The notes under the pieces were generated by a model. The model did no database searches. It worked only from the letters and a program-made list of their open reading frames with translations, and was not told the origin of the DNA. The position numbers and the translations under genes were made by a program. From an uncultured Flavobacteriia bacterium (GTDB lineage: Bacteria; Bacteroidota; Bacteroidia; Flavobacteriales_D; Crocinitomicaceae), in NCBI GenBank assembly GCA_903873915.1, contig CAIQQH010000040.1, positions 1 to 44,077 of the forward strand: DNA of 44,077 nucleotides, in the 5' to 3' direction. Positions 1-37,599 of the stretch are shown here, one piece after another. Each line of letters begins with the position of its first letter. Positions within the stretch are counted from its first letter, which is position 1.

Positions 1-788
1 TATTTCTTCTTATCACGTGTCTTGTACCCTTTTGCAGGCACACCATTACGTGAGCGTGGGTGTCCACCGGAATTACGGCCCTCACCACCACCCATTGGGT
101 GATCGACTGGGTTCATAACCACACCACGTACACGTGGACGGCGACCCAACCATCGTGAGCGTCCTGCTTTTCCAGAAACTACCAAGTTGTGTTCAGCGTT
201 CGACACCGAACCGATCGTAGCGAGGCATGTCGTCAAGATCATACGCGTTTCACCTGAAGGCATTTTGATGATCGCATAGCGACCGTCACGTGCATTCAAT
301 TGAGCGTAAGTTCCTGCACCACGTGCAATAGCACCACCTTTACCAGGCTTCAATTCGATATTGTGAATCACAGTACCCAGTGGAACGTCGCTCAAGAAAA
401 GTGCATTTCCTACATTAGGAGCCGCATTTTTTCCAGATACAACTGTATCTCCCACTTTCAATCCGCTTGGCGCGATGATATAGCGTTTCTCTCCATCCGC
501 ATAGAACAACAAAGCAATGTGAGCAGTACGATTTGGATCGTACTCAATTGACTTTACCGTAGACGGGATTTCGTGCTTATCGCGTTTAAAATCGATGATA
601 CGGTACCTTTGTTTGTGTCCGCCACCGAGGTAACGCATGGTCATACGACCATCATTGTTTCGACCACCTGACTTCTTCATGCTAGAAACCAAACTCTTTT
701 CTGGAGAGCTTGCTGTTAACTCTGAATAGTCGCTGATGACCTTGTGTCTTTGCCCTGGAGTAATAGGCTTGAATTTTTTAAGACTCAT
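1..788 (-). CDS. rplB: 50S ribosomal protein L2 (partial, C-terminus off the left edge)
   Basis: L2 is a primary 23S rRNA-binding protein needed for subunit association and peptidyl-transferase centre assembly. The frame opens with [16 protein letters not shown] and carries the typical L2 core, including the conserved [17 protein letters not shown] stretch near its C-terminal end. 262 codons plus two bases (TA) are present and no stop is seen, so the last dozen or so residues of a roughly 274-residue protein lie outside the window. It is the last visible gene of the ribosomal operon, 11 bases after the rplW stop. The ATG at 786-788 is the natural start. Confidence 0.97.
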
Positions 789-799
789 TTGTCAGCTGC

Positions 800-1099
800 T
801 TAAAAATTAGTAAATAAATCAATCGTCTCTCCATCTGCAACCGTAACCACCGCTTTTTTCCATTGCTTGCTTGGTTGCTCAACGATACCTTTGTTTGTAA
901 ATTTAACAGAGGATTTTCCACCGCCATAATTCATTGTACGCACTTCAGTAATACTGACTCCATACAATTTCTCGACGGCATTTTTTATCTCGATCTTGTT
1001 TGCTGAACGGTCAACAGCGAATGTAAAACGGTTACGCTTTTCAGTTTCTACTGTTGCTTTTTCAGTAATGATCGGTTTTTTGATAATTGTTCTCATCAT
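800..1099 (-). CDS. rplW: 50S ribosomal protein L23
   Basis: L23 sits at the ribosome exit tunnel and forms the docking site for trigger factor and signal recognition particle. The protein begins MMRTIIKKPIITEKA, the usual start of the family, and at about 99 residues has normal length. A TTG at 1102 is an alternative start directly before two consecutive ATGs; I prefer the ATG at 1099 or 1096. It follows rplD with a gap of only a few bases, so the genes are probably translationally coupled. Confidence 0.96.
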   Translation of the reverse strand: MMRTIIKKPIITEKATVETEKRNRFTFAVDRSANKIEIKNAVEKLYGVSITEVRTMNYGGGKSSVKFTNKGIVEQPSKQWKKAVVTVADGETIDLFTNF

Positions 1100-1102
1100 C
1101 AA

Positions 1103-1729
1103 TTAATTTAATATCTTTTCGATCACTTCAATTGAACTTTCAGCCAAAACTACTTTTTTCGCATTCAACACATCGTATGTGTTCACAGAATCAGCAGTTA
1201 CGACCTTTACACGTCCAAGGTTACGTGAAGACAGATAAACATTGTCATTTTTTTCTCCTAGCACCAACAATACCTTTTCATTGGTAAGATTTAATGCTTC
1301 CAACATTGCCTTGAATTCTTTCGTTTTCGCAGCGTCAAATTTCGGATCTTCCAAAATTAGGATTGCATCATTCTTCGCTTTGTAAGAGAATGCTGACTTA
1401 CGAGCCAGACGCTTCAACTTTACATTCAGCTTGAAATGATAGTTGCGTGGTTTTGGTCCGAAAATACGACCTCCACCTACACGTGTACCAGACTTAATGC
1501 TACCAGCACGTGCGCCACCTGTTCCTTTTTGCTTTTTAATTTTTCGTGTTGATCCAGAGATTTCAGCGCGTTCCTTTGATTTGTGAGTTCCTTGACGACG
1601 ATTCGCCAAGTGTTGTTTCACATCCAAATAGATTGCGTGATCGTTTGGTTCAATTCCAAAAATTGTTTCTGAAAGCGTAACTTTCTTCGAAGTTGCTTTT
1701 CCTTTCGCGTCAAATACCTTTACTTCCAT
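1103..1729 (-). CDS. rplD: 50S ribosomal protein L4
   Basis: L4 binds 23S rRNA and lines the exit tunnel through an extended loop. The sequence shows the family loop around residues 60-95 ([17 protein letters not shown], then [13 protein letters not shown]). About 208 residues, usual length. The start ATG at 1727-1729 shares one base with the rplC stop (TGATG arrangement); a GTG directly upstream at 1732 is a possible alternative. In E. coli L4 autoregulates the S10 operon, but I see no leader here that would show the same. Confidence 0.97.
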
Positions 1730-2343
1730 CACTTCACAATTGTTACGGTTGAACCTTTAGAACCAGGGATTGATCCTTTTACAACGATCAAATTTCTATC
1801 AGCAAGCACTTTAAGTACAACCAAGTTTTCCATTACGATACGCTTGTTCCCCATCTGACCTGCCATGCGCATTCCTTTGAATACACGTGCTGGGTACGAA
1901 CATGCACCGATTGATCCTGGTGCACGAAGACGGTTATGCTGACCGTGAGTTGCTTGACCAACACCGGCGAAGCCGTGTCGTTTTACTACCCCTTGGAAAC
2001 CTTTACCTTTCGAAGTTCCTACTACACTAACGAATTCACCTTCCTCGAAGAGATCAACGTTAACGTTATCACCGAGATTTAAGTTATCAAAACCTTTAAA
2101 TTCAACCAACTTCGATTTAGGCGAAGTGTTGGCCTTTTTAAAGTGACCTTTCAATGCGTTTGGCGTATTTTTCTCCTTGCGGTCGCCAAACCCCAATTGA
2201 ACGGCATCGTAACCATCTCTGTCTTGCGTCTTCACCTGAGTGACAACGCAAGGACCAGCTTCTATCACCGTGCATGGTAATGCTTTACCCTCGGCACTGT
2301 AGATGCTAGTCATTCCGACTTTTTTACCAATAATTCCTGGCAT
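1729..2343 (-). CDS. rplC: 50S ribosomal protein L3
   Basis: L3 is one of the first proteins to bind 23S rRNA and helps start large-subunit assembly. The 204-residue product begins [15 protein letters not shown] and contains the conserved stretch [18 protein letters not shown] followed by [19 protein letters not shown], which forms the loop reaching toward the peptidyl-transferase centre. It lies 17 bases after rpsJ and overlaps the start of rplD by one base. Confidence 0.97.
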
Positions 2344-2360
2344 ATTTTACTTTTTATGGA

Positions 2361-2669
2361 TTAAACTACTTTAATTTCAACGTCAACACCGCTTGGCAAT
2401 TCCAAACGCATGAGCGCATCAACAGTCTTCGAAGAAGAGCTGTAGATATCGAGTAAACGCTTGTATGCGCAAAGCTCAAACTGCTCACGTGCTTTCTTGT
2501 TCACGTGTGGTGACTTCAACACAGTGTAAATTCTTTTGTGCGTAGGCAATGGAATTGGTCCGCTTACTACTGCACCTGTCGACTTCACTGTTTTAACGAT
2601 CTTCTCTGCTGACTTATCAACGAGGTTGTGATCGTAAGACTTCAATTTTATTCTGATTTTCTGACTCAT
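2361..2669 (-). CDS. rpsJ: 30S ribosomal protein S10
   Basis: S10 is a small-subunit head protein, known in E. coli also as NusE, a partner of NusB in antitermination. 102 residues, with the typical [21 protein letters not shown] start and the [21 protein letters not shown] loop. It directly follows fusA with 17 bases between, so in this genome the str genes and the S10 genes form one continuous run without a tuf gene in between, a common Bacteroidota arrangement. Confidence 0.97.
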
Positions 2670-2686
2670 CTGAATTGTAATTTTTT

Positions 2687-4792
2687 TTATGCTGTTACTT
2701 TACCGGTTACTTTCGCTACTACCGCATCTGCTACGTTCTTCGGAGCCTCTGCATAGTGAGAGAATTCCATTGACGAACTTGCGCGACCAGAAGACATCGT
2801 ACGAAGCTGTGTTACATATCCGAACATTTCAGAAAGTGGAACATCTGCTTTAACGACCTTTGATCCTGCACGGTCATCCATTCCACGAATAACACCACGA
2901 CGACGGTTCAAGTCACCTACGATATCACCCATGTTTTCTTCTGGAGTAACCACTTCCATCTTCATGATTGGCTCAAGAAGAATTGGACGCGCATTTTTCA
3001 ATGCAGTACGGTATGCCATTTTCGCACACAACTCGAAAGACAATGAATCTGAATCGACAGCGTGGAACGAACCATCCAACAATTCAACTTTCATTGCTTC
3101 AATTTGGAAGCCGGCCAATACACCATTTTTCATTGATTCTTTGAATCCTTTCTCTACTGAAGGGATAAATTCACGAGGAATGTTACCACCTTTCACCGAG
3201 TTAATAAACTCAAGACCTTTTTTCTCATCATTGTCTTGTGGAGAGATTTTCACAACGATATCGGCAAATTTACCACGACCACCAGACTGTTTTTTGAACA
3301 CTTCACGGTGATCAATTGTCGCTGTAATGTTCTCACGGTAAGAAACCTGAGGCGCACCTTGATTTACTTCCACTTTAAACTCACGCTTCAAACGGTCTAC
3401 GATAATCTCTAGGTGAAGCTCACCCATTCCTGAGATAATTGTTTGACCAGTTTCCTCGTCAGTATTTACGCGGAACGTAGGATCTTCCTCAGCCAATTTA
3501 TTCAATCCGATACCCAATTTATCTTGATCTGCTTGAGTTTTTGGCTCAATAGCGATTCCGATAACCGGTTCTGGGAAGTTCATCGATTCAAGAATGATTG
3601 GTGCATTTTCAGCACATAAAGTATCTCCTGTACGAATGTCTTTAAATCCAACCAAGGCTCCGATATCTCCAGCACCTAGCTCATCAATTTGATTTTGCTT
3701 GTTTGCGTGCATTTGGAAGATCCGAGAGATGCGCTCTTTGTTGTTCGTACGTGTGTTCAACACATAAGATCCTGCAGGTAGTCTACCTGAGTAAGCACGT
3801 GTAAAACACAAGCGACCAACAAAGGGATCAGTTGCAATTTTAAATGCCAAACCTGCGAACGGCTCATCATAAGATGGCTGACGCGAAATTGGTTCATCAT
3901 TCTTCGGATTAATTCCTACAATTGCATCAATATCTAAAGGTGAAGGAAGAATTTCCATGACCATGTCCAACATGGCTTGAACTCCTTTGTTTTTAAACGA
4001 AGAGCCACACATCATTGGAACAACTTTTCCAGAGATTGTTGCTTGACGCAATGCATCAAGAATTTCTCTTTCCGTCAATGAATTTTCATCCTCAAAGAAT
4101 TTCTCCATCAAGCTCTCATCAAATTCCGCTACTGCCTCCAACAATTCACTGCGCAATCTGCGTGCGTCATCGATAATGTCAGCAGGAATTTCTACTTCAC
4201 TAAATGTCATTCCTTGATCAGCATCGTTCCAAACGATCCCTTTCCAGTTGATCAAGTCAACAACTCCTTTGAAGTTGTCATCTTCACCAATGTTAATTTG
4301 TAGTGGCAAAGCTTGACTTCCCAACATTTCTTTCACTTGCCTGCAAACATTAAGGAAGTCAGCACCCTGACGGTCCATTTTGTTTACAAACCCGATACGT
4401 GGAACGTTGTAGTTATTTGCCAAACGCCAGTTTGTCTCAGATTGTGGCTCAACACCATCAACTGCAGAGAACAAGAACACTAAACCATCCAATACGCGCA
4501 ATGAACGATTCACCTCAACAGTGAAGTCAACGTGTCCTGGAGTGTCAATAATATTGATATGGTATTTTGTACCACGGTAAAGCCAGCCTACTGTTGTTGC
4601 TGCCGAAGTAATGGTAATCCCACGCTCCTGCTCTTGCTCCATCCAGTCCATTGTAGCACCACCTTCGTGTACCTCACCAATTTTGTGATTCACACCAGAG
4701 TAATACAAAATACGCTCAGTGGTCGTCGTTTTACCTGCATCAATGTGAGCAGCGATACCAATGTTACGTGTATATTTAAGATCTCTTGACAT
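2687..4792 (-). CDS. fusA: Translation elongation factor G
   Basis: EF-G drives tRNA-mRNA translocation using GTP and, with RRF, recycles ribosomes. At 701 residues it is full length. G-domain motifs are intact: AHIDAGKTT at residues 15-23, DTPGH at 83-87 and NKMD at 137-140. It is followed by domain II, the domain III region ([18 protein letters not shown]), and domains IV and V. It lies 5 bases after rpsG and 17 before rpsJ, in the usual str-operon position for EF-G, and is probably the housekeeping copy. Confidence 0.98.
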
Positions 4793-33006: not shown

Positions 33007-33040
33007 AAAAAAATGCCCCATTCAAACGAACAGGGCATTT
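33007..33040 (-). terminator. Terminator of the metal-handling cassette
   Basis: An 8-bp perfect stem (AAATGCCC at 33011-33018 with GGGCATTT at 33033-33040) plus a T run on the minus strand lies 21 bases after the YHYH gene stop, marking the end of the operon. Confidence 0.85.
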
Positions 33041-33060
33041 CAAAAGTGAATACGTATTGT

Positions 33061-34431
33061 CTAATCAATTACAACTGTATACGTACGTTGCTTCCCTGGC
33101 TCGTTGATGCGCAAAAAATAAGTTCCACTATACAAGGTTGACGCAGAGAAATAACACAGGGTGCTTCCTTGAAAAATGGTCTGCGTTTGTATCACTTTTC
33201 CTGCAGCATCCACCAATTCCGCGGTTACATTTCCTATGAGCAATCCAGAGGATTGAACTACCAAAATGTCTGCTGTTGGATTAGGGAAAATGCTGAAAGT
33301 AGTTGCGCTTAAATCTTCAACTCCGGCCGATGATGTATAGGTCGTCACTGTCTCCGTAATTGATGTCACCTTAGATGCGACTTTAGTTCCATAGAATGTT
33401 GGTCCAACGACATAGGGATAAGCGGAATTGTGGTTCGCATCCACCGTTGCAAAATAGCAGTAAATTCCATTTGGATATTCGGGTGTTACACAAAAACGTC
33501 CATTGTGTTCGTCCAAATAATCTGCTTGACCAGCATGTGCCACGAACTCGTAATCTTCACGGAAATAGCCCAAGGGATAAGTCGTACTCACGGCAGGACC
33601 ATCGGCTACATTGGTGCCATCTGCCCAAACCGTTCTGGTGGTGATGTTGCGCAATTGGTAACTGGACTTGATGCGTACAATCCCTCCAGTTCCGTCAGCA
33701 TTGGCATATCCATACGCGCCATAAATCGGGAAACCATCATAGGCAAATCCAATCAATGGTGAATGTTGTGCTGCGTTGATTGCATACAATCCATCAGCTG
33801 CATACAAATCACAAACGGTTGAAATTACTGTCAAGTCAAGATTGAAGGCACTTGGATTTTGGTGATGGTGATAATTACCCATTGCTGGGTGACCTTTTGA
33901 GCAGTCGAAGCCAAGTTTTTCCGCTGGAATAGCATCACGATTCCAAGATTGTGCTGTTCCTGGTCCACCTGGACAAGGCGACATACCAGGTAAACCTCCA
34001 CACAAGGTGTTTGTTGTTGTGTTCCAAGCCACACCATCACGGTAGTCGAATAAGGCAACACCATTGATAAACACACCGATATTTCCTCCAGTCGTAGCGG
34101 TAGGCGTTCCTGTATTTTGAACTGGATTCAAAGGAAATTTAAAAATCGCATTTTGATCTGTAGCCAACGATGGATTTCCATCCAAGAAAGGACCTGTTGG
34201 ATAAGCAGGAATTCCGTTTGTAGTGACATACACCCAATTTGTTGAATATTGCACCGTTTGCACATTCGCCTCAACGTTATCTGGAATCACTGTGGAATTT
34301 CCGGAAACATAATGGCTACCCATTATCCCAGTTGTATTTTGAAGCCAAGCGGTAATAGCTGGATTCGATTGTCCGAAAGCTATGGAACTTAGTCCAACAG
34401 CAAGAACGGAACACATTTTTTTCATCATCAT
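33061..34431 (-). CDS. YHYH-domain protein with T9SS type A sorting domain
   Basis: 456 residues with a signal peptide (MMMKKMCSVLAVGLSSIAFGQ). The central part carries the YHYH-family core: HPAMGNYHHHQNP (His181 and His188-190) and SPLIGFAYDGFPIYG (~224-238), with DEHNGRFCVTPEYPNGIYCYF later. The histidine cluster is a plausible metal site, but that is inference. Residues ~376-456 are a type A sorting domain (FSIFPNPTADILVV, ASTLYSGTYFLRI), so the protein is probably secreted by T9SS. It lies 56 bases after the di-heme peroxidase gene and directly before a terminator; it is the last gene of the cassette. Confidence 0.85.
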   Translation of the reverse strand: MMMKKMCSVLAVGLSSIAFGQSNPAITAWLQNTTGIMGSHYVSGNSTVIPDNVEANVQTVQYSTNWVYVTTNGIPAYPTGPFLDGNPSLATDQNAIFKFPLNPVQNTGTPTATTGGNIGVFINGVALFDYRDGVAWNTTTNTLCGGLPGMSPCPGGPGTAQSWNRDAIPAEKLGFDCSKGHPAMGNYHHHQNPSAFNLDLTVISTVCDLYAADGLYAINAAQHSPLIGFAYDGFPIYGAYGYANADGTGGIVRIKSSYQLRNITTRTVWADGTNVADGPAVSTTYPLGYFREDYEFVAHAGQADYLDEHNGRFCVTPEYPNGIYCYFATVDANHNSAYPYVVGPTFYGTKVASKVTSITETVTTYTSSAGVEDLSATTFSIFPNPTADILVVQSSGLLIGNVTAELVDAAGKVIQTQTIFQGSTLCYFSASTLYSGTYFLRINEPGKQRTYTVVID

Positions 34432-34487
34432 ATTTAGTCGTTTTGTAGTGTTAGGATACTCTTTCTTTTGAAAACTTGTGCAAGAAA

Positions 34488-35519
34488 CTACTTTTTTGGA
34501 AAAGAAAAACGTGGGTTGTATAAAAATTGTTTGTCTGTCAAGGTGTATAGAAATGCCAACAAATCCTTTTGCTGCTTGTCGCTCAGGTGAATAGGCCCAT
34601 TTAATTCACGGCTTAAATGGCTATTTGCCGGATCAATTTTATCACTGTAATAGGAAATCACCTCCTTCAATTTTCGAAAACGGCCGTCGTGCATGTAAGG
34701 AAAGGTAAATTCAATATTTCGCAATGTCGGAATCATAAACAAGAATGAATCTACTACTTTCCCTGTTATTGCGAACCTTCCCAAGTCCTTGAATATAGGG
34801 TCACTTTGCAGACCATTCGACTTAAATTGATGGGTGGTAAACAAGGGTTCTTGGTGGCAGGAAACACAATGTTGACGAAAAATCACGAGTCCACTTTGCT
34901 CTTGTTCAGTGAAAGTCACCCCTTTTTCCTTTCGCAGCACTTGATCGTACTTGCTGTTTGACGAGATCAAGGAACGTGTAAATTGACTCAAGGCATTCAT
35001 CAGCTTCGCTGTGGTAATTTCATCGGCTCCATAAACACGTTGAAATTGTTTTCGGTAGTCATCATTCAAAGTCAGGCGGCGAATGACTTCGGCCAGGGTG
35101 TTATCCATTTCAGCGGGATGTGTCAACGGATTGATTCCTTGTGCTTCGATATGATTAACGCCTCCATCCCAGTGAAAAAACTTTTTCCATGCCAAATTAA
35201 TCAAGGCTGGAGCATTTCGAGTGCCCTTACGGCCATCAATTCCATGGCTCACATTGTGGTCAACATGCGTAAATCCCGTGTATTGAAGATGACATGTTGC
35301 GCAGGAGATGGTGCTGTCACGTGACAACATCGGATCGTAAAATAAGCTTCTTCCCAACTGAAAACCCTCTTCTGAAATTGCCTTTTCGGAAAGATCATAC
35401 GTAGGTTTCGGCCATTTTTTTGGGATTGAAATTTTTGATTTGAAGATTGGGAGATCAAAACGATATGCCGACAAGAGCCCTGAAATCAATACAAACAATA
35501 GGAAAATCAATCTATTCAT
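34488..35519 (-). CDS. MbnH-like di-heme cytochrome c peroxidase family protein
   Basis: 343 residues with an N-terminal export segment. Two c-type heme sites: CATCH (73-77) and CVSCH (218-222). In the family, MauG/CcpA-type di-heme enzymes reduce peroxide or oxidise a protein partner; the MbnH branch oxidises a tryptophan of MbnP to kynurenine. Other conserved parts: GTRNAPALINLAW, FFHWDGG and PYMHDGRFRKLKEVISYY. Its start overlaps the MbnP-like gene by 8 bases, the usual pairing for MbnP/MbnH, which favours MbnH over an ordinary peroxidase. Confidence 0.88.
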   Translation of the reverse strand: MNRLIFLLFVLISGLLSAYRFDLPIFKSKISIPKKWPKPTYDLSEKAISEEGFQLGRSLFYDPMLSRDSTISCATCHLQYTGFTHVDHNVSHGIDGRKGTRNAPALINLAWKKFFHWDGGVNHIEAQGINPLTHPAEMDNTLAEVIRRLTLNDDYRKQFQRVYGADEITTAKLMNALSQFTRSLISSNSKYDQVLRKEKGVTFTEQEQSGLVIFRQHCVSCHQEPLFTTHQFKSNGLQSDPIFKDLGRFAITGKVVDSFLFMIPTLRNIEFTFPYMHDGRFRKLKEVISYYSDKIDPANSHLSRELNGPIHLSDKQQKDLLAFLYTLTDKQFLYNPRFSFPKK

Positions 35520-36189
35520 GGCGATAGGTCAATTGAATGGATGCTTGCACTTTTGTCGCCAATTCTGCTGAAATTTTACCCGGAATCATGAGTGAATATA
35601 TCCCTTTCTCAAATGCATAGGTCAACCAATCGTCCATAAGAATGACAAGTTGAGGAATACCACGCTGCGGATTAACATCAAATGACAGGAAACGCACGGT
35701 TGCATTGGGTGCTAAATATCCTCCAAGATGGAATTCAAAGGGAAATTCCTTCCCTGTGGAATCGCGGTACAAACCTTCTGATTTTACATTGATGTAGCCG
35801 CTGTTCCATGCCCAATACATGCCGTTAATAGGGTCTAATGCACCTTCTAGAATACCAGAAACATTGCTCAAACTGTCTGTGCCCAATAGAAAATCGATGC
35901 GCACAGCCGCAGAATCTATTTCTCCAATAGATTGACTGGATGAATCTTCAAGATTAACGAGAGTAGTTGGCCAGTGCTTAATAAGCTTCCCATTCTCCGT
36001 TAAGGTGCGAAAATCACTGACATAGAATTTAATCGACTGAAAACTTATACGTCCTTCTGCGATAGTATATTCTTTACCCAATTCAATGGCTTGCGAACCA
36101 AGGCATGGAACAAAGCGAAGCACAGATTGATTAAACGCATTAAAGCAAATCAACACGAGGCAAAAGCATACAAATTTTGAAACAGTCAA
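35512..36189 (-). CDS. MbnP-like copper-binding family protein
   Basis: 225 residues with a signal peptide (residues ~3-20). The MbnP core is clear: FQSIKFYVSDFR (~50-61), IDFLLGTDSLSNVSG (98-112), ALDPINGMYWAWNSGYINVK (117-136) and FHLGGY (153-158). Trp126 and Trp128 lie in the MYWAW motif, and His154 is a likely metal ligand. The start is TTG at 36189; no in-frame ATG is available. The four-cysteine motif of classical MbnP proteins is absent: only one cysteine (Cys29) remains after the signal peptide. It starts 5 bases after the CnrX-like gene and overlaps the MbnH-like gene by 8. Confidence 0.85.
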   Translation of the reverse strand: MTVSKFVCFCLVLICFNAFNQSVLRFVPCLGSQAIELGKEYTIAEGRISFQSIKFYVSDFRTLTENGKLIKHWPTTLVNLEDSSSQSIGEIDSAAVRIDFLLGTDSLSNVSGILEGALDPINGMYWAWNSGYINVKSEGLYRDSTGKEFPFEFHLGGYLAPNATVRFLSFDVNPQRGIPQLVILMDDWLTYAFEKGIYSLMIPGKISAELATKVQASIQLTYRHE

Positions 36190-36194
36190 TGCAT

Positions 36195-36647
36195 TTATCT
36201 TTTATGTCGAGAAGGAGGACCATCACGTTGAATCACTTCTTCGAAATGTTCATTCAAGCGTTCGCGTTGTTCAGCATTGCAATAGGTCTTCAATTCATCG
36301 AAATAGGCATACAACAAAAATGCAATTTTTCTGTGATTCTCTGCAATGGCATTAACAAGTTCCTTTGCTTTCGTACTGTCCTCATTGTCTTTCAGAAAAA
36401 CGCGATAAAGCTGGTCGTGAAGTTGTTTAATTTGATCATTGAGGCGATGCATTTCCTTGTGATGATTTTGTTGAATTCGGTTAACTTCCTTTTCCTTTTG
36501 GCCTTTAATCCCCAGTTTTTCAGCAATATTTATTCTGTCTGGAGGCAGGTGTGGATGATCTGGTCTCAACAACAAAAAACAAAGTGTCACTATATTGATT
36601 ACTACCAATATAAGCAACAGCATTCTGTACATTTTCAGCGTTTTCAT
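36195..36647 (-). CDS. CnrX/Spy-like periplasmic metal-sensor protein
   Basis: 150 residues: a membrane anchor (~8-27), then a soluble helical domain. Histidines stand out: PDHPHLPPDR (His31, His33), NHHKEMHRLN (His62, His63, His67) and His77. This helical, His/Met-rich layout fits the CpxP/Spy/ZraP/CnrX family, whose members sense or bind divalent metals (CnrX senses Ni/Co; others Zn or Cu) or act as chaperones. Its position after a one-TM protein and a sigma factor suggests the CnrX role. TAATG overlap of one base with the upstream gene. Confidence 0.75.
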   Translation of the reverse strand: MKTLKMYRMLLLILVVINIVTLCFLLLRPDHPHLPPDRINIAEKLGIKGQKEKEVNRIQQNHHKEMHRLNDQIKQLHDQLYRVFLKDNEDSTKAKELVNAIAENHRKIAFLLYAYFDELKTYCNAEQRERLNEHFEEVIQRDGPPSRHKR

Positions 36648-36934
36648 TATATTGAATTATAGGGTAAAAAATAGGTGCTATAAATCGAATTGTCCTTGTT
36701 CGCGTTGATATTTTTTTGTTTTGTGCTGATTGCGAACACGTTGATGGAAATCAATAGCGCTAAGCCTGCGGCAGCCATCCAAACATGAGTACTTGGAAGC
36801 GTAAATGCTTTGACCTCCAAATGATTCGGAATATCCATCAGTTGATTGCGCAGACGGGCAGGCAAAGAACGCCCTTTGTTGAAAGGGTCGCGCTCCATCG
36901 CTTCATCTATCCAATGTTTTTTGTCCATGCTCAT
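36647..36934 (-). CDS. Small one-TM protein placed as an anti-sigma factor
   Basis: 95 residues: a charged N-terminal part (1-50), one membrane segment (~51-70) and a short periplasmic tail. It has no recognisable zinc-finger anti-sigma motif. By position between the ECF sigma factor (30 bases upstream) and the CnrX-like gene (1-base overlap), it corresponds to CnrY of the CnrYXH system, which holds the sigma factor at the membrane. The role is inferred from context and topology only. Confidence 0.6.
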   Translation of the reverse strand: MSMDKKHWIDEAMERDPFNKGRSLPARLRNQLMDIPNHLEVKAFTLPSTHVWMAAAGLALLISINVFAISTKQKNINANKDNSIYSTYFLPYNSI

Positions 36935-36964
36935 ATTGATGCCTTTAAGTTAAAAATATTGCGT

Positions 36965-37543
36965 TCACATTTCATTTTCTTGATAATAGCTGTGTAATTT
37001 TTGCTGAAGGTTTTTCCGAGCACGAAAGATTAAGGATTCTACAGCAGTGATCCTTAAGTTTAAAATTGTGCAGATTTCCTGTTGTGAAATACCTTCAATT
37101 TTATGCAATGTAAAGGCCAAGTGTTGTTTTTCAGGCAACTGATTTATTGCCGCAAATAGGACAGCTGATCGCTCCTTATTCTCCAACTCCTCCAACGGTC
37201 CTTGAGATGCAGCAATTAAACTTTCAGAGGCATTCTCATTGTCGATTGAAAGCATGAAGCCGAAGCGTTTCTTGCGCGAACGATTGCGAACATGTTCTTT
37301 GAATTTATTCACGGAAATTCGATAAATCCAAGTGGAGAGCTTTGATTCGCCTTTGAATTGAGAAATCGTTAAAAAAACGGTGGTGAATACCTCTTGTGTA
37401 AGGTCTTCCGCCTCCATCTCATTGCGCAGGAGTCCACGCAACAGATTGAAAACTTTCTCTGCATGCATCTCAATGAGCAATGAAAACTCCTTGTTGTCTC
37501 CTTTTTTGAGACGTTCAATATCAATGTGTTTTGTTTCGCTCAT
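36965..37543 (-). CDS. ECF-type RNA polymerase sigma factor
   Basis: 192 residues. Sigma region 2: HAEKVFNLLRGLLRNEMEAEDLTQEVF and the STWIYRISVNKFKEHVR segment. Sigma region 4: LPEKQHLAFTLHKIEGISQQEIC, then LNLRITAVESLIFRARKNLQQKL, a helix-turn-helix for -35 recognition. It lies 56 bases after the polyprenyl synthetase gene and heads a run of six closely spaced genes, so it probably controls its own operon. The upstream spacer holds no housekeeping TAnnTTTG box, which is consistent with another promoter type or with read-through. Confidence 0.9.
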   Translation of the reverse strand: MSETKHIDIERLKKGDNKEFSLLIEMHAEKVFNLLRGLLRNEMEAEDLTQEVFTTVFLTISQFKGESKLSTWIYRISVNKFKEHVRNRSRKKRFGFMLSIDNENASESLIAASQGPLEELENKERSAVLFAAINQLPEKQHLAFTLHKIEGISQQEICTILNLRITAVESLIFRARKNLQQKLHSYYQENEM

Positions 37544-37599
37544 CCGTAGAATACTTCAGATGACACTTTTAAGAAATCCTTGTGCACCTTGCTTGTGCG

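What the first reader, a model, noticed from the sequence alone, without database searches (positions are those of the whole stretch)
33061..37543. ECF sigma / CnrXY-like sensor / MbnP / MbnH / YHYH cassette: a possible new metal-response system
Six minus-strand genes follow each other with gaps of 30, -1, 5, -8 and 56 bases and a terminator directly after the last. The first three (ECF sigma factor, one-TM protein, His-rich membrane-anchored CnrX/Spy-like protein) have the layout of the CnrYXH metal-sensing regulator; the next two are an MbnP-like protein and its MbnH-like di-heme partner; the last is a His-rich YHYH protein with a T9SS export tag. I infer that the sigma factor controls the five genes in response to periplasmic metal, probably copper. 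MbnP/MbnH and YHYH proteins are known families, but I do not know of this combination being described.
Basis: partly seen in the sequence, partly recalled or inferred. Interest (0 to 1): 0.88.

Follow-up and report, generated by a model that had tools for sequence, protein, structure and literature searches.

The report
Surface-protein operon with its own switch
Six neighbouring genes of a Bacteroidota bacterium form a conserved unit in which a gene switch turns on itself and a set of cell-surface and periplasmic proteins, some of a copper-linked family; the switch and its DNA targets can be read from the sequence, but the signal it senses, copper or not, still has to be shown.

Summary
In detail: six minus-strand genes, gaps 30, -1, 5, -8, 56, terminator. 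Of 45 related loci, 23 keep sigma / CnrX-fold protein / MbnP / MbnH / YHYH in this order, with differing flanks. Within one genus it has three dialects, and an unlinked CotH-kinase gene has its own cassette's dialect in 19 of 19 genomes (two sites weak). A TonB receptor has the motif in 14 of 14 readable orthologues, 0 of 13 paralogues. A dedicated sigma regulon is well supported. The metal part is weaker: the sensor has the CnrX fold but none of the five CnrX ligands; this MbnP branch keeps one of eight usual His columns; MbnH gained H-x2-H-x3-H. No efflux gene belongs to the conserved unit. Best reading: surface metal (copper?) handling or uptake. New variant of a known kind.

The parts
36965..37543 (-). 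ECF sigma factor (192 aa), RpoE/SigH-like
   Evidence: Pfam Sigma70_r2/r4; profile of 20 orthologues hits SigH/RpoE structures 1e-42 to 6e-38, CnrH 6e-19
36647..36934 (-). 95-aa one-TM protein, candidate anti-sigma factor (CnrY-like in size and topology only)
   Evidence: hydrophobic stretch at about residues 51-69; no Pfam match, only a weak NCBIfam match below cut-off; no significant similarity to CnrY; a small ORF in the same slot in 28 of 30 loci
36195..36647 (-). membrane-anchored CnrX/Spy-fold protein, candidate periplasmic sensor
   Evidence: AlphaFold pLDDT 86.6, N-terminal helix plus helical hairpin; best PDB matches are CnrX chains, best E 0.085, TM-score by target 0.74 (no match at E 0.001 or better); full-length alignment with CnrX but no CnrX ligand kept
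35512..36189 (-). MbnP-family protein, divergent branch, TTG start, signal-like N-terminus without lipobox
   Evidence: PF20243 107.6 bits; W126-A-W128 and H154 kept, other MbnP His mostly lost; lipobox pattern 4 of 46 in the branch versus 10 of 10 others
34488..35519 (-). MbnH-like di-heme enzyme with branch-specific H85-x2-H88-x3-H92
   Evidence: CCP_MauG 3e-54; nearest solved structure 6e1c 3e-44; H85 42/43, H88 42/43, H92 43/43 in this branch against 0, 1 and 0 of 11 others
33061..34431 (-). YHYH protein with T9SS type A sorting tail
   Evidence: PF14240 7e-60, Por_Secre_tail 8e-9; invariant H181, H188, H190, H223 in 28 sequences
37556..37584 (-). predicted sigma-specific promoter 1 (CACAAG-N16-CATCTGA), before sigma
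36935..36963 (-). predicted sigma-specific promoter 2 (CGCAAT-N16-CATCAAT), sigma/anti-sigma gap
   Evidence: second-best hit of the matrix in the 44-kb window; held-out test
34452..34480 (-). predicted sigma-specific promoter 3 (CACAAG-N16-TATCCTA), MbnH/YHYH gap
   Evidence: held-out test
33010..33041 (-). terminator-like stem-loop after YHYH

Best explanation
The six genes are a self-contained ECF-sigma regulon for handling, most likely acquiring, a metal (copper is the best guess) at the cell surface. Inferred steps: at rest the 95-aa membrane protein holds the sigma factor and is kept in place by the CnrX-fold protein on its periplasmic side; a periplasmic signal changes that protein and frees sigma. 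Supported by sequence: sigma then uses its own promoter, a second one before anti-sigma/sensor/MbnP/MbnH, and a third before YHYH, plus one before an unlinked CotH-kinase surface protein and, in related genomes, a TonB-dependent receptor. Inferred from the families: MbnH uses peroxide to oxidise a Trp of the W-x-W motif of MbnP (to kynurenine), which with H154 and perhaps Met201 makes a metal site; YHYH is exported by T9SS and acts on the cell surface. How likely: dedicated sigma regulon about 0.9; metal as substrate about 0.6; copper about 0.45; uptake rather than detoxification about 0.4.
For: Recurrent gene order with changing flanks. CAAG-N16-CATC in 23 of 41 regions upstream of sigma, against one region each at spacings 8, 12 and 25 and none at the other spacings from 8 to 25; shuffles mean 0.11, at most 2. 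Matrix trained on 13 non-redundant upstream-of-sigma sites, then applied elsewhere: sigma/anti gap 27 of 33 (0.06 expected), MbnH/YHYH gap 18 of 27 testable of 31 (0.05 expected) (window included, rows related, so counts overstate independence). Own genome: the pattern drawn from the three sites matches 4 places in 2.8 Mb, three of them these by construction, 0 in the reversed control. In G045 and G052 regulator and MbnP-MbnH-YHYH are on different contigs; in G045 all 3 genome-wide matches of the variant motif lie at sigma, MbnP and YHYH. Cassette and CotH share the dialect in 19 of 19 genomes of the genus for which both could be read, out of 26; 17 of the 19 CotH sites score 0.85 or more, reached by 1.8% of random windows. 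TonB receptor orthologues 14 of 14 readable of 15, paralogues 0 of 13. The sigma-4 helix follows the dialect: F at window position 173 with CAAG, Y with AAAAG, mostly Q with GRGGG. CnrX fold. Multicopper oxidase with T9SS tail inside the operon of L049.
Against: No expression data. All five CnrX metal ligands are absent from the window's sensor; of possible ligand residues only H62 (32/34) and C123 (34/34) are conserved. Of eight His columns found in at least 5 of 10 other MbnPs the branch keeps one widely. The TonB receptor has no Met/His enrichment (16 M, 10 H of 781), and its orthologue was not found in the window's genome (87.5% complete; only a 41% paralogue without the motif). Eight loci of the same MbnP branch have no sigma in the 3.1-5.9 kb read upstream; six more start too near a contig end to tell. 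7 of 37 CnrX-like places have no listed MbnP nearby. Two CotH sites of the genus (G001, G018) score only 0.77, which 6% of random windows reach. CotH homologues outside the genus: motif in 2 of 8. TonB promoters in two AAAAG-dialect genomes (G017, G025) do not look like that dialect.
Confidence: 0.6

Rival explanations
1. Envelope or redox stress regulon: the Spy/CnrX-fold sensor reports misfolded protein or peroxide through its invariant Cys123, and MbnH acts as a peroxidase; metals are incidental.
For: CnrX ligands absent; C123 invariant 34/34; Spy is among the nearest solved structures by sequence profile (3oeo, E 0.009; NccX 0.024; CnrX 1.4); sigma is RpoE-like; MbnH belongs to the di-heme peroxidase family.
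Against: The targets read so far are few and specific (MbnP, MbnH, YHYH, CotH, TonB receptor), no chaperone, protease or peroxide gene among them (not a whole-genome regulon); the MbnP W-x-W partner motif is kept 46 of 46.
Confidence: 0.25
2. Copper detoxification operon: sigma responds to excess periplasmic copper and MbnP, YHYH and (in a relative) multicopper oxidase sequester or oxidise it.
For: CnrX-fold sensors answer to metal excess in Cupriavidus (recalled; the cnr region with CnrCBA and CnrT was seen); T9SS multicopper oxidase in L049.
Against: No efflux family in the conserved unit or among the targets read; a TonB receptor among the targets and copper-repressed CorA/MopE, a similar protein pair (PMC3912023, passages), point to uptake.
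Confidence: 0.2
3. Two independent neighbours: a generic sigma/anti/CnrX-like triad that happens to sit before an MbnP-MbnH-YHYH operon.
For: Triads without MbnP nearby (L079, L081, L085, L086) and MbnP-MbnH-YHYH without sigma (L048, L051, L052) exist.
Against: Promoter recurrence before YHYH and before unlinked MbnP/YHYH/CotH, with matching dialects; triad and YHYH side by side without MbnP in L088; Fisher p 2e-8 for co-occurrence of CnrX-like and YHYH over 60 genomes, 5e-4 over the 34 outside the genus (relatedness not corrected).
Confidence: 0.05

Closest known systems
CnrYXH of Cupriavidus metallidurans pMOL28 (read)
   Same: sigma + about 95-aa one-TM protein + about 150-aa membrane-anchored sensor of the same fold
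   Different: gene order sigma-anti-sensor instead of Y-X-H; sensor lacks H42, H46, E63, H119, M123; sigma only 25% identical to CnrH; no RND efflux genes in the unit
MbnP/MbnH pairs of methanotrophs and others; MbnI/MbnR/MbnT neighbours (PMC3621798, passages)
   Same: adjacent MbnP and di-heme MbnH; some known pairs lie near an ECF sigma and a TonB receptor
   Different: those sigmas are FecI-type with FecR and a signalling TonB receptor; here a CnrX-fold sensor, a divergent MbnP/MbnH branch and YHYH
MopE/SACCP and CorA/CorB (PMC3912023, passages)
   Same: surface copper protein with kynurenine plus di-heme partner, copper-regulated
   Different: MbnP profile found no CorA or MopE structure; ligands Kyn62, H64, H114 cannot be mapped here; the passages read name no sigma/sensor genes
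RpoE-type ECF promoters (GAACTT-N16-TCTGA, recalled)
   Same: two boxes with about 16-base spacer, TCTRA-like second box
   Different: first box CAAGTT / AAAAG / GRGGGA, changing together with the sigma-4 helix

Membership tests
CnrYXH metal-sensing system | sensor with CnrX fold | tested here: met
   CnrX chains lead the Foldseek list, prob 0.96-1.00, TMt 0.59-0.78, E 0.085-0.63, none at E 0.001 or better; colinear profile alignment, E 0.0012 but probability 20%
CnrYXH metal-sensing system | metal ligands H42, H46, E63, H119, M123 | tested here: not met
   map to R38, A42, Q59, Y115, L119 in the window; only the H119 position is often His in relatives (22 of 34) (ligand list recalled, residues checked in the sequence)
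CnrYXH metal-sensing system | sigma of the CnrH kind | tested here: not met
   profile: SigH/RpoE 1e-42 to 6e-38, CnrH 6e-19; 25% identity over 176 residues
CnrYXH metal-sensing system | small class II anti-sigma CnrY | tested here: inconclusive
   95 aa and one TM stretch like CnrY (95 aa), no sequence similarity (E 0.25)
CnrYXH metal-sensing system | controls metal efflux genes | tested here: not met
   no efflux family among the conserved genes, the inserts scanned or the targets read; flanking genes not all scanned
MbnP | Pfam PF20243 above cut-off | tested here: met
   107.6 bits, cut-off 27
MbnP | NCBIfam TIGR04052 equivalog cut-off | tested here: not met
   30 bits, cut-off 140
MbnP | W-x-W motif | tested here: met
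   W126 and W128 in 46 of 46 of the branch and 10 of 10 others
MbnP | copper binding and Trp oxidation | not testable with these tools
   H154 kept (45 of 46); seven other His columns of ordinary MbnPs are His in 0-4 of 46; the H201 column is Met in 39 of 46
MbnH | two CxxCH haem sites, MauG/CCP domain | tested here: met
   C73, C76, H77 and C218, C221, H222 in 43 of 43
MbnH | NCBIfam TIGR04039 cut-off | tested here: not met
   207.7 bits, cut-off 362.85
YHYH (PF14240) | model above cut-off | tested here: met
   202.7 bits, cut-off 25
T9SS cargo | C-terminal sorting domain | tested here: met
   TIGR04183 38.8 bits, cut-off 23; structure matches to T9SS C-terminal domains

The most novel reading that the evidence does not exclude
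A copper(I)-acquisition regulon of the Bacteroidota cell surface, not described in the library searched: a CnrX-fold sensor that has exchanged the CnrX site for a His/Cys arrangement releases an RpoE-like sigma with a fast-drifting promoter dialect; this switches on a TonB importer, T9SS-exported YHYH and CotH proteins, and an MbnH (with an added H-x2-H-x3-H metal motif) that builds a kynurenine/His/Met site in MbnP. It would give the YHYH family a first role.
Probability: 0.25. Interest if true: 0.82.

Novelty: new variant of a known kind. Interest (0 to 1): 0.64.

Why it matters
It ties three poorly understood families (YHYH, MbnP/MbnH, bacterial CotH kinases) to one sigma factor and promoter, so a single mutant or a metal-exposure transcriptome can test their shared role. 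The same genus shows three promoter dialects that move together between cassette and an unlinked gene and track the sigma-4 helix: a natural experiment on how sigma specificity drifts. It also offers a candidate class of small anti-sigma factors for a phylum in which only 6% of ECF sigmas are associated with class I anti-sigma genes (PMC7406223, passages).

Tried and rejected
Simple pattern CAAG-N16-CATCT in the own genome: 37 matches against 17 for the reversed control; of 30 loci read first only the window's lies before a gene start outside a longer frame; of the 7 others, read later, all lie inside long frames on one strand or the other, one also with a start 42 bases on. Too loose to define a regulon. 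Variant pattern in 12 further genomes: 10 matches, 10 in the reversed control, noise as a whole, though three of the ten lie before an anti-sigma-like gene (G043, G046) or CotH (G046). Genus pattern: 27 matches in 26 genomes, 18 in the reversed control; 8 lie on cassette contigs at cassette positions; I picked 6 others by eye for closeness to the consensus, and all 6 stood before CotH or a TonB receptor; both were then tested by orthology. The remaining 13 were not read. Three further G052 matches: one before a DUF2490-like protein (name recalled), one 107 bases before a PPK2-like gene (recalled), one that looks like coding sequence; not claimed.

YHYH structure model is weak (pLDDT 65.5); Foldseek finds T9SS tails and unrelated beta domains, nothing for the YHYH domain that I could recognise. 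MbnP finds no believable solved structure by sequence, the TonB receptor none. sigma-70-type promoter scan: 12 sites, 12.3 expected. Ten genes beside sigma-less loci: mostly enzymes or no family, no regulator among them. Literature: ten searches; none of the listings shows a paper on this combination; passages of three papers were read, the rest seen as listings; subscription papers on MbnH/MbnP (recalled) are not held.

Rejected: canonical CnrX metal site; 'His-rich' as a family trait; chance neighbourhood.
Full report
Observation. The six ORFs, strands, gaps (30, -1, 5, -8, 56) and the terminator are as described. Pfam supports sigma, MbnP, MauG/MbnH-type di-heme enzyme, YHYH and a T9SS tail; the 95-aa protein has no Pfam family; the CnrX-like protein is below the Metal_resist cut-off. 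The genome (G000, 2.8 Mb, 87.5% complete) has two further MbnP loci in whose 3.6 kb none of the regulator genes was seen.

Conservation. A scan of named genomes with the MbnP gave 45 loci. 31 have the sigma; in 30 sigma, CnrX-like gene and MbnP follow on one strand, in 28 of these with a small ORF between the first two, and 23 go on with MbnH and YHYH; in L069 the regulator genes point the other way. Fourteen have no sigma: eight with 3.1-5.9 kb read upstream, six that begin near a contig end, two of which (L038, L064) still show the CnrX-like gene. The genes on either side differ between groups (a 287-aa and a 323-aa gene before sigma in the window's group; a 1,400-aa gene and an acetyltransferase in another), so the unit runs from sigma to YHYH. 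Variants: a T9SS multicopper oxidase plus a thioredoxin-like gene between MbnP and MbnH (L049; genes of the same size in L072, not scanned), a CotH protein between sensor and MbnP (L089), an apparent MbnH-YHYH fusion (L076, may be an assembly fault), MbnP-MbnH-YHYH-YHYH in Chlorobiota (L050, L051; no sigma in 5.8 kb of L051). Over 60 genomes (own included) 30 of 37 CnrX-like places have MbnP within 3.5 kb and 24 have YHYH within 6 kb; 28 of 44 YHYH places have MbnP within 4 kb, some of the others being near contig ends or in other loci; CnrX-like and YHYH occur together in 33 genomes, alone in 3 and 5, neither in 19 (relatedness not corrected).

Promoter. Upstream of sigma many loci share CAAG-N16-CATC with a variable spacer sequence: 23 of 41 regions; one region each at spacings 8, 12 and 25; shuffles 0.11 on average, at most 2. 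A matrix from 13 non-redundant sites of this class alone puts its best hits of whole loci in the sigma/anti gap (27 of 33 above threshold, 0.06 expected) and often in the MbnH/YHYH gap (18 of 27 testable; 4 of 31 rows had no gap; 0.05 expected) (window included). The window has all three sites. The own genome has only one other match of the pattern drawn from them, in C17, with no gene assigned.

Trans targets and dialects. In more distant groups the same positions carry forms of GMAGGA-N14-TCGTCTAA. In G045 and G052 the regulator lies on another contig than MbnP-MbnH-YHYH, yet the variant motif stands before sigma and before YHYH in both, and before MbnP in G045. The pattern was made from such sites; what is informative is that G045, G038 and G055 have no other match, while G052 has three more and the reversed control has two in the four genomes together. 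Reading further matches gave two new target genes: a CotH-kinase/LTD/T9SS protein and a TonB-dependent receptor. Tested by orthology: TonB receptor orthologues (73-100% identical) have the site in 14 of 14 readable of 15, three of them being those found by the pattern; paralogues (41-56%) in 0 of 13; 10 of the 38 matches were not tested. CotH orthologues of the genus: 19 had a readable upstream and a cassette promoter to compare, of 26 genomes. Three dialects occur inside the genus: CRCAAG (13 genomes), CAAAAG (G006, G017, G025), GAGGGA...CGTC (G012, G013, G015); cassette and CotH agree in 19 of 19, two of these CotH genes having been found by the pattern itself. Random windows of the same loci reach the lowest CotH score, 0.77 (G001, G018), in 6% of cases and 0.85, reached by the other 17, in 1.8%. 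The own genome's CotH site lies at C42:20746-20774. In the sigma-4 helix the residue at window position 173 is F, Y and Q respectively; other GAAGG/GRGGG-type sigmas have Q, S or T, the GCAGG one V. Outside the genus 2 of 8 CotH homologues have a site (G046, G055); G035 and G045, which have regulators, do not; G034 shows only a loose AAAAG-type match.

Proteins. Sensor: CnrX fold by AlphaFold and Foldseek. Aligned to CnrX from pMOL28 end to end, its residues at the five ligand positions are R38, A42, Q59, Y115, L119. Family-wide H62 (32 of 34), F116, C123 (34 of 34 each) and Q127 (33) stand out; H115 is present in 22 of 34. MbnP: W126, W128, H154 kept; of eight columns that are His in at least 5 of 10 other MbnPs only H154 is kept widely, the other seven being His in 0 to 4 of 46 (the window keeps one of these, H224), one being Met in 39 of 46; lipobox in 4 of 46 versus 10 of 10. 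MbnH: H85, H88, H92 in 42, 42 and 43 of 43 of this branch and in 0, 1 and 0 of 11 others; absent from the solved 6e1c at the aligned places; in a tree of 53 rows the ordinary MbnHs fall on one side of a branch with support 84/92 (long branches present, L002 may be misplaced). YHYH: invariant H181, H188, H190, H223 with several invariant acidic residues; fold unresolved.

Mechanism. Shown by sequence: a unit with its own sigma, a conserved promoter-like set and remote targets. Inferred: that these are promoters of this sigma, the 95-aa protein as anti-sigma, the sensor's signal, Trp oxidation, metal binding, surface action. Copper is suggested by the copper-linked MbnP/MbnH and CorA/MopE pairs (PMC3912023, PMC3621798; passages read) and the multicopper oxidase of L049; it is not tested. 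The set holds importer-like and surface proteins and no efflux pump was seen in it, so I lean to acquisition or surface handling.

Novelty. MbnP/MbnH near an ECF sigma and a TonB receptor is known from Methylosinus with FecI/FecR-type regulators (PMC3621798, passages). A CnrX-fold sensor, YHYH and CotH in one sigma regulon appeared in no listing of the held library (one search lists 26 papers with the word YHYH, one search lists 40 of 55 with MbnP, seen as listings only). Record titles of several loci (for example Chitinophaga pinensis, Polynucleobacter) are those of metagenome bins and look wrong for these contigs.

Noticed in passing
L049 6718-9069; L072 6574-8919: T9SS-tagged multicopper oxidase and an AhpC/thioredoxin-like gene inserted between MbnP and MbnH in L049; genes of the same size in L072 (Pfam run on L049 only).
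   Followed up: partly
L076 297-2282: One ORF of 661 aa joins an MbnH-type N-terminal part and a YHYH protein; may be a real fusion or an assembly error.
   Followed up: no
L088 (G001:C64) 386-4073: A second sigma/small ORF/CnrX-like triad lies divergently beside two YHYH proteins, without MbnP in the 8 kb read.
   Followed up: partly
L146 (G052:C31) 1501-1528: Variant motif 41 bases before a 241-aa protein with a signal-like N-terminus; possible further regulon member.
   Followed up: no
L002 and L003 (own genome C50, C10): Two other MbnP loci with di-heme partners and no sigma seen nearby; L002's partner is very divergent.
   Followed up: no
L147 17905-18027: A 40-aa peptide annotated 'YHYH domain-containing' lies just before cnrYXH on pMOL28; it is short and not shown to be related to PF14240.
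   Followed up: no
L079, L081, L085, L086: Sigma/CnrX-like loci (small ORF between them in L079, L081, L085) without MbnP nearby; neighbours scanned include TPR (L079), sulfatase-modifying (L081) and DUF2817 (L085) genes; GCAGG/GAAGG-type motif in L079, L081 and L085.
   Followed up: partly
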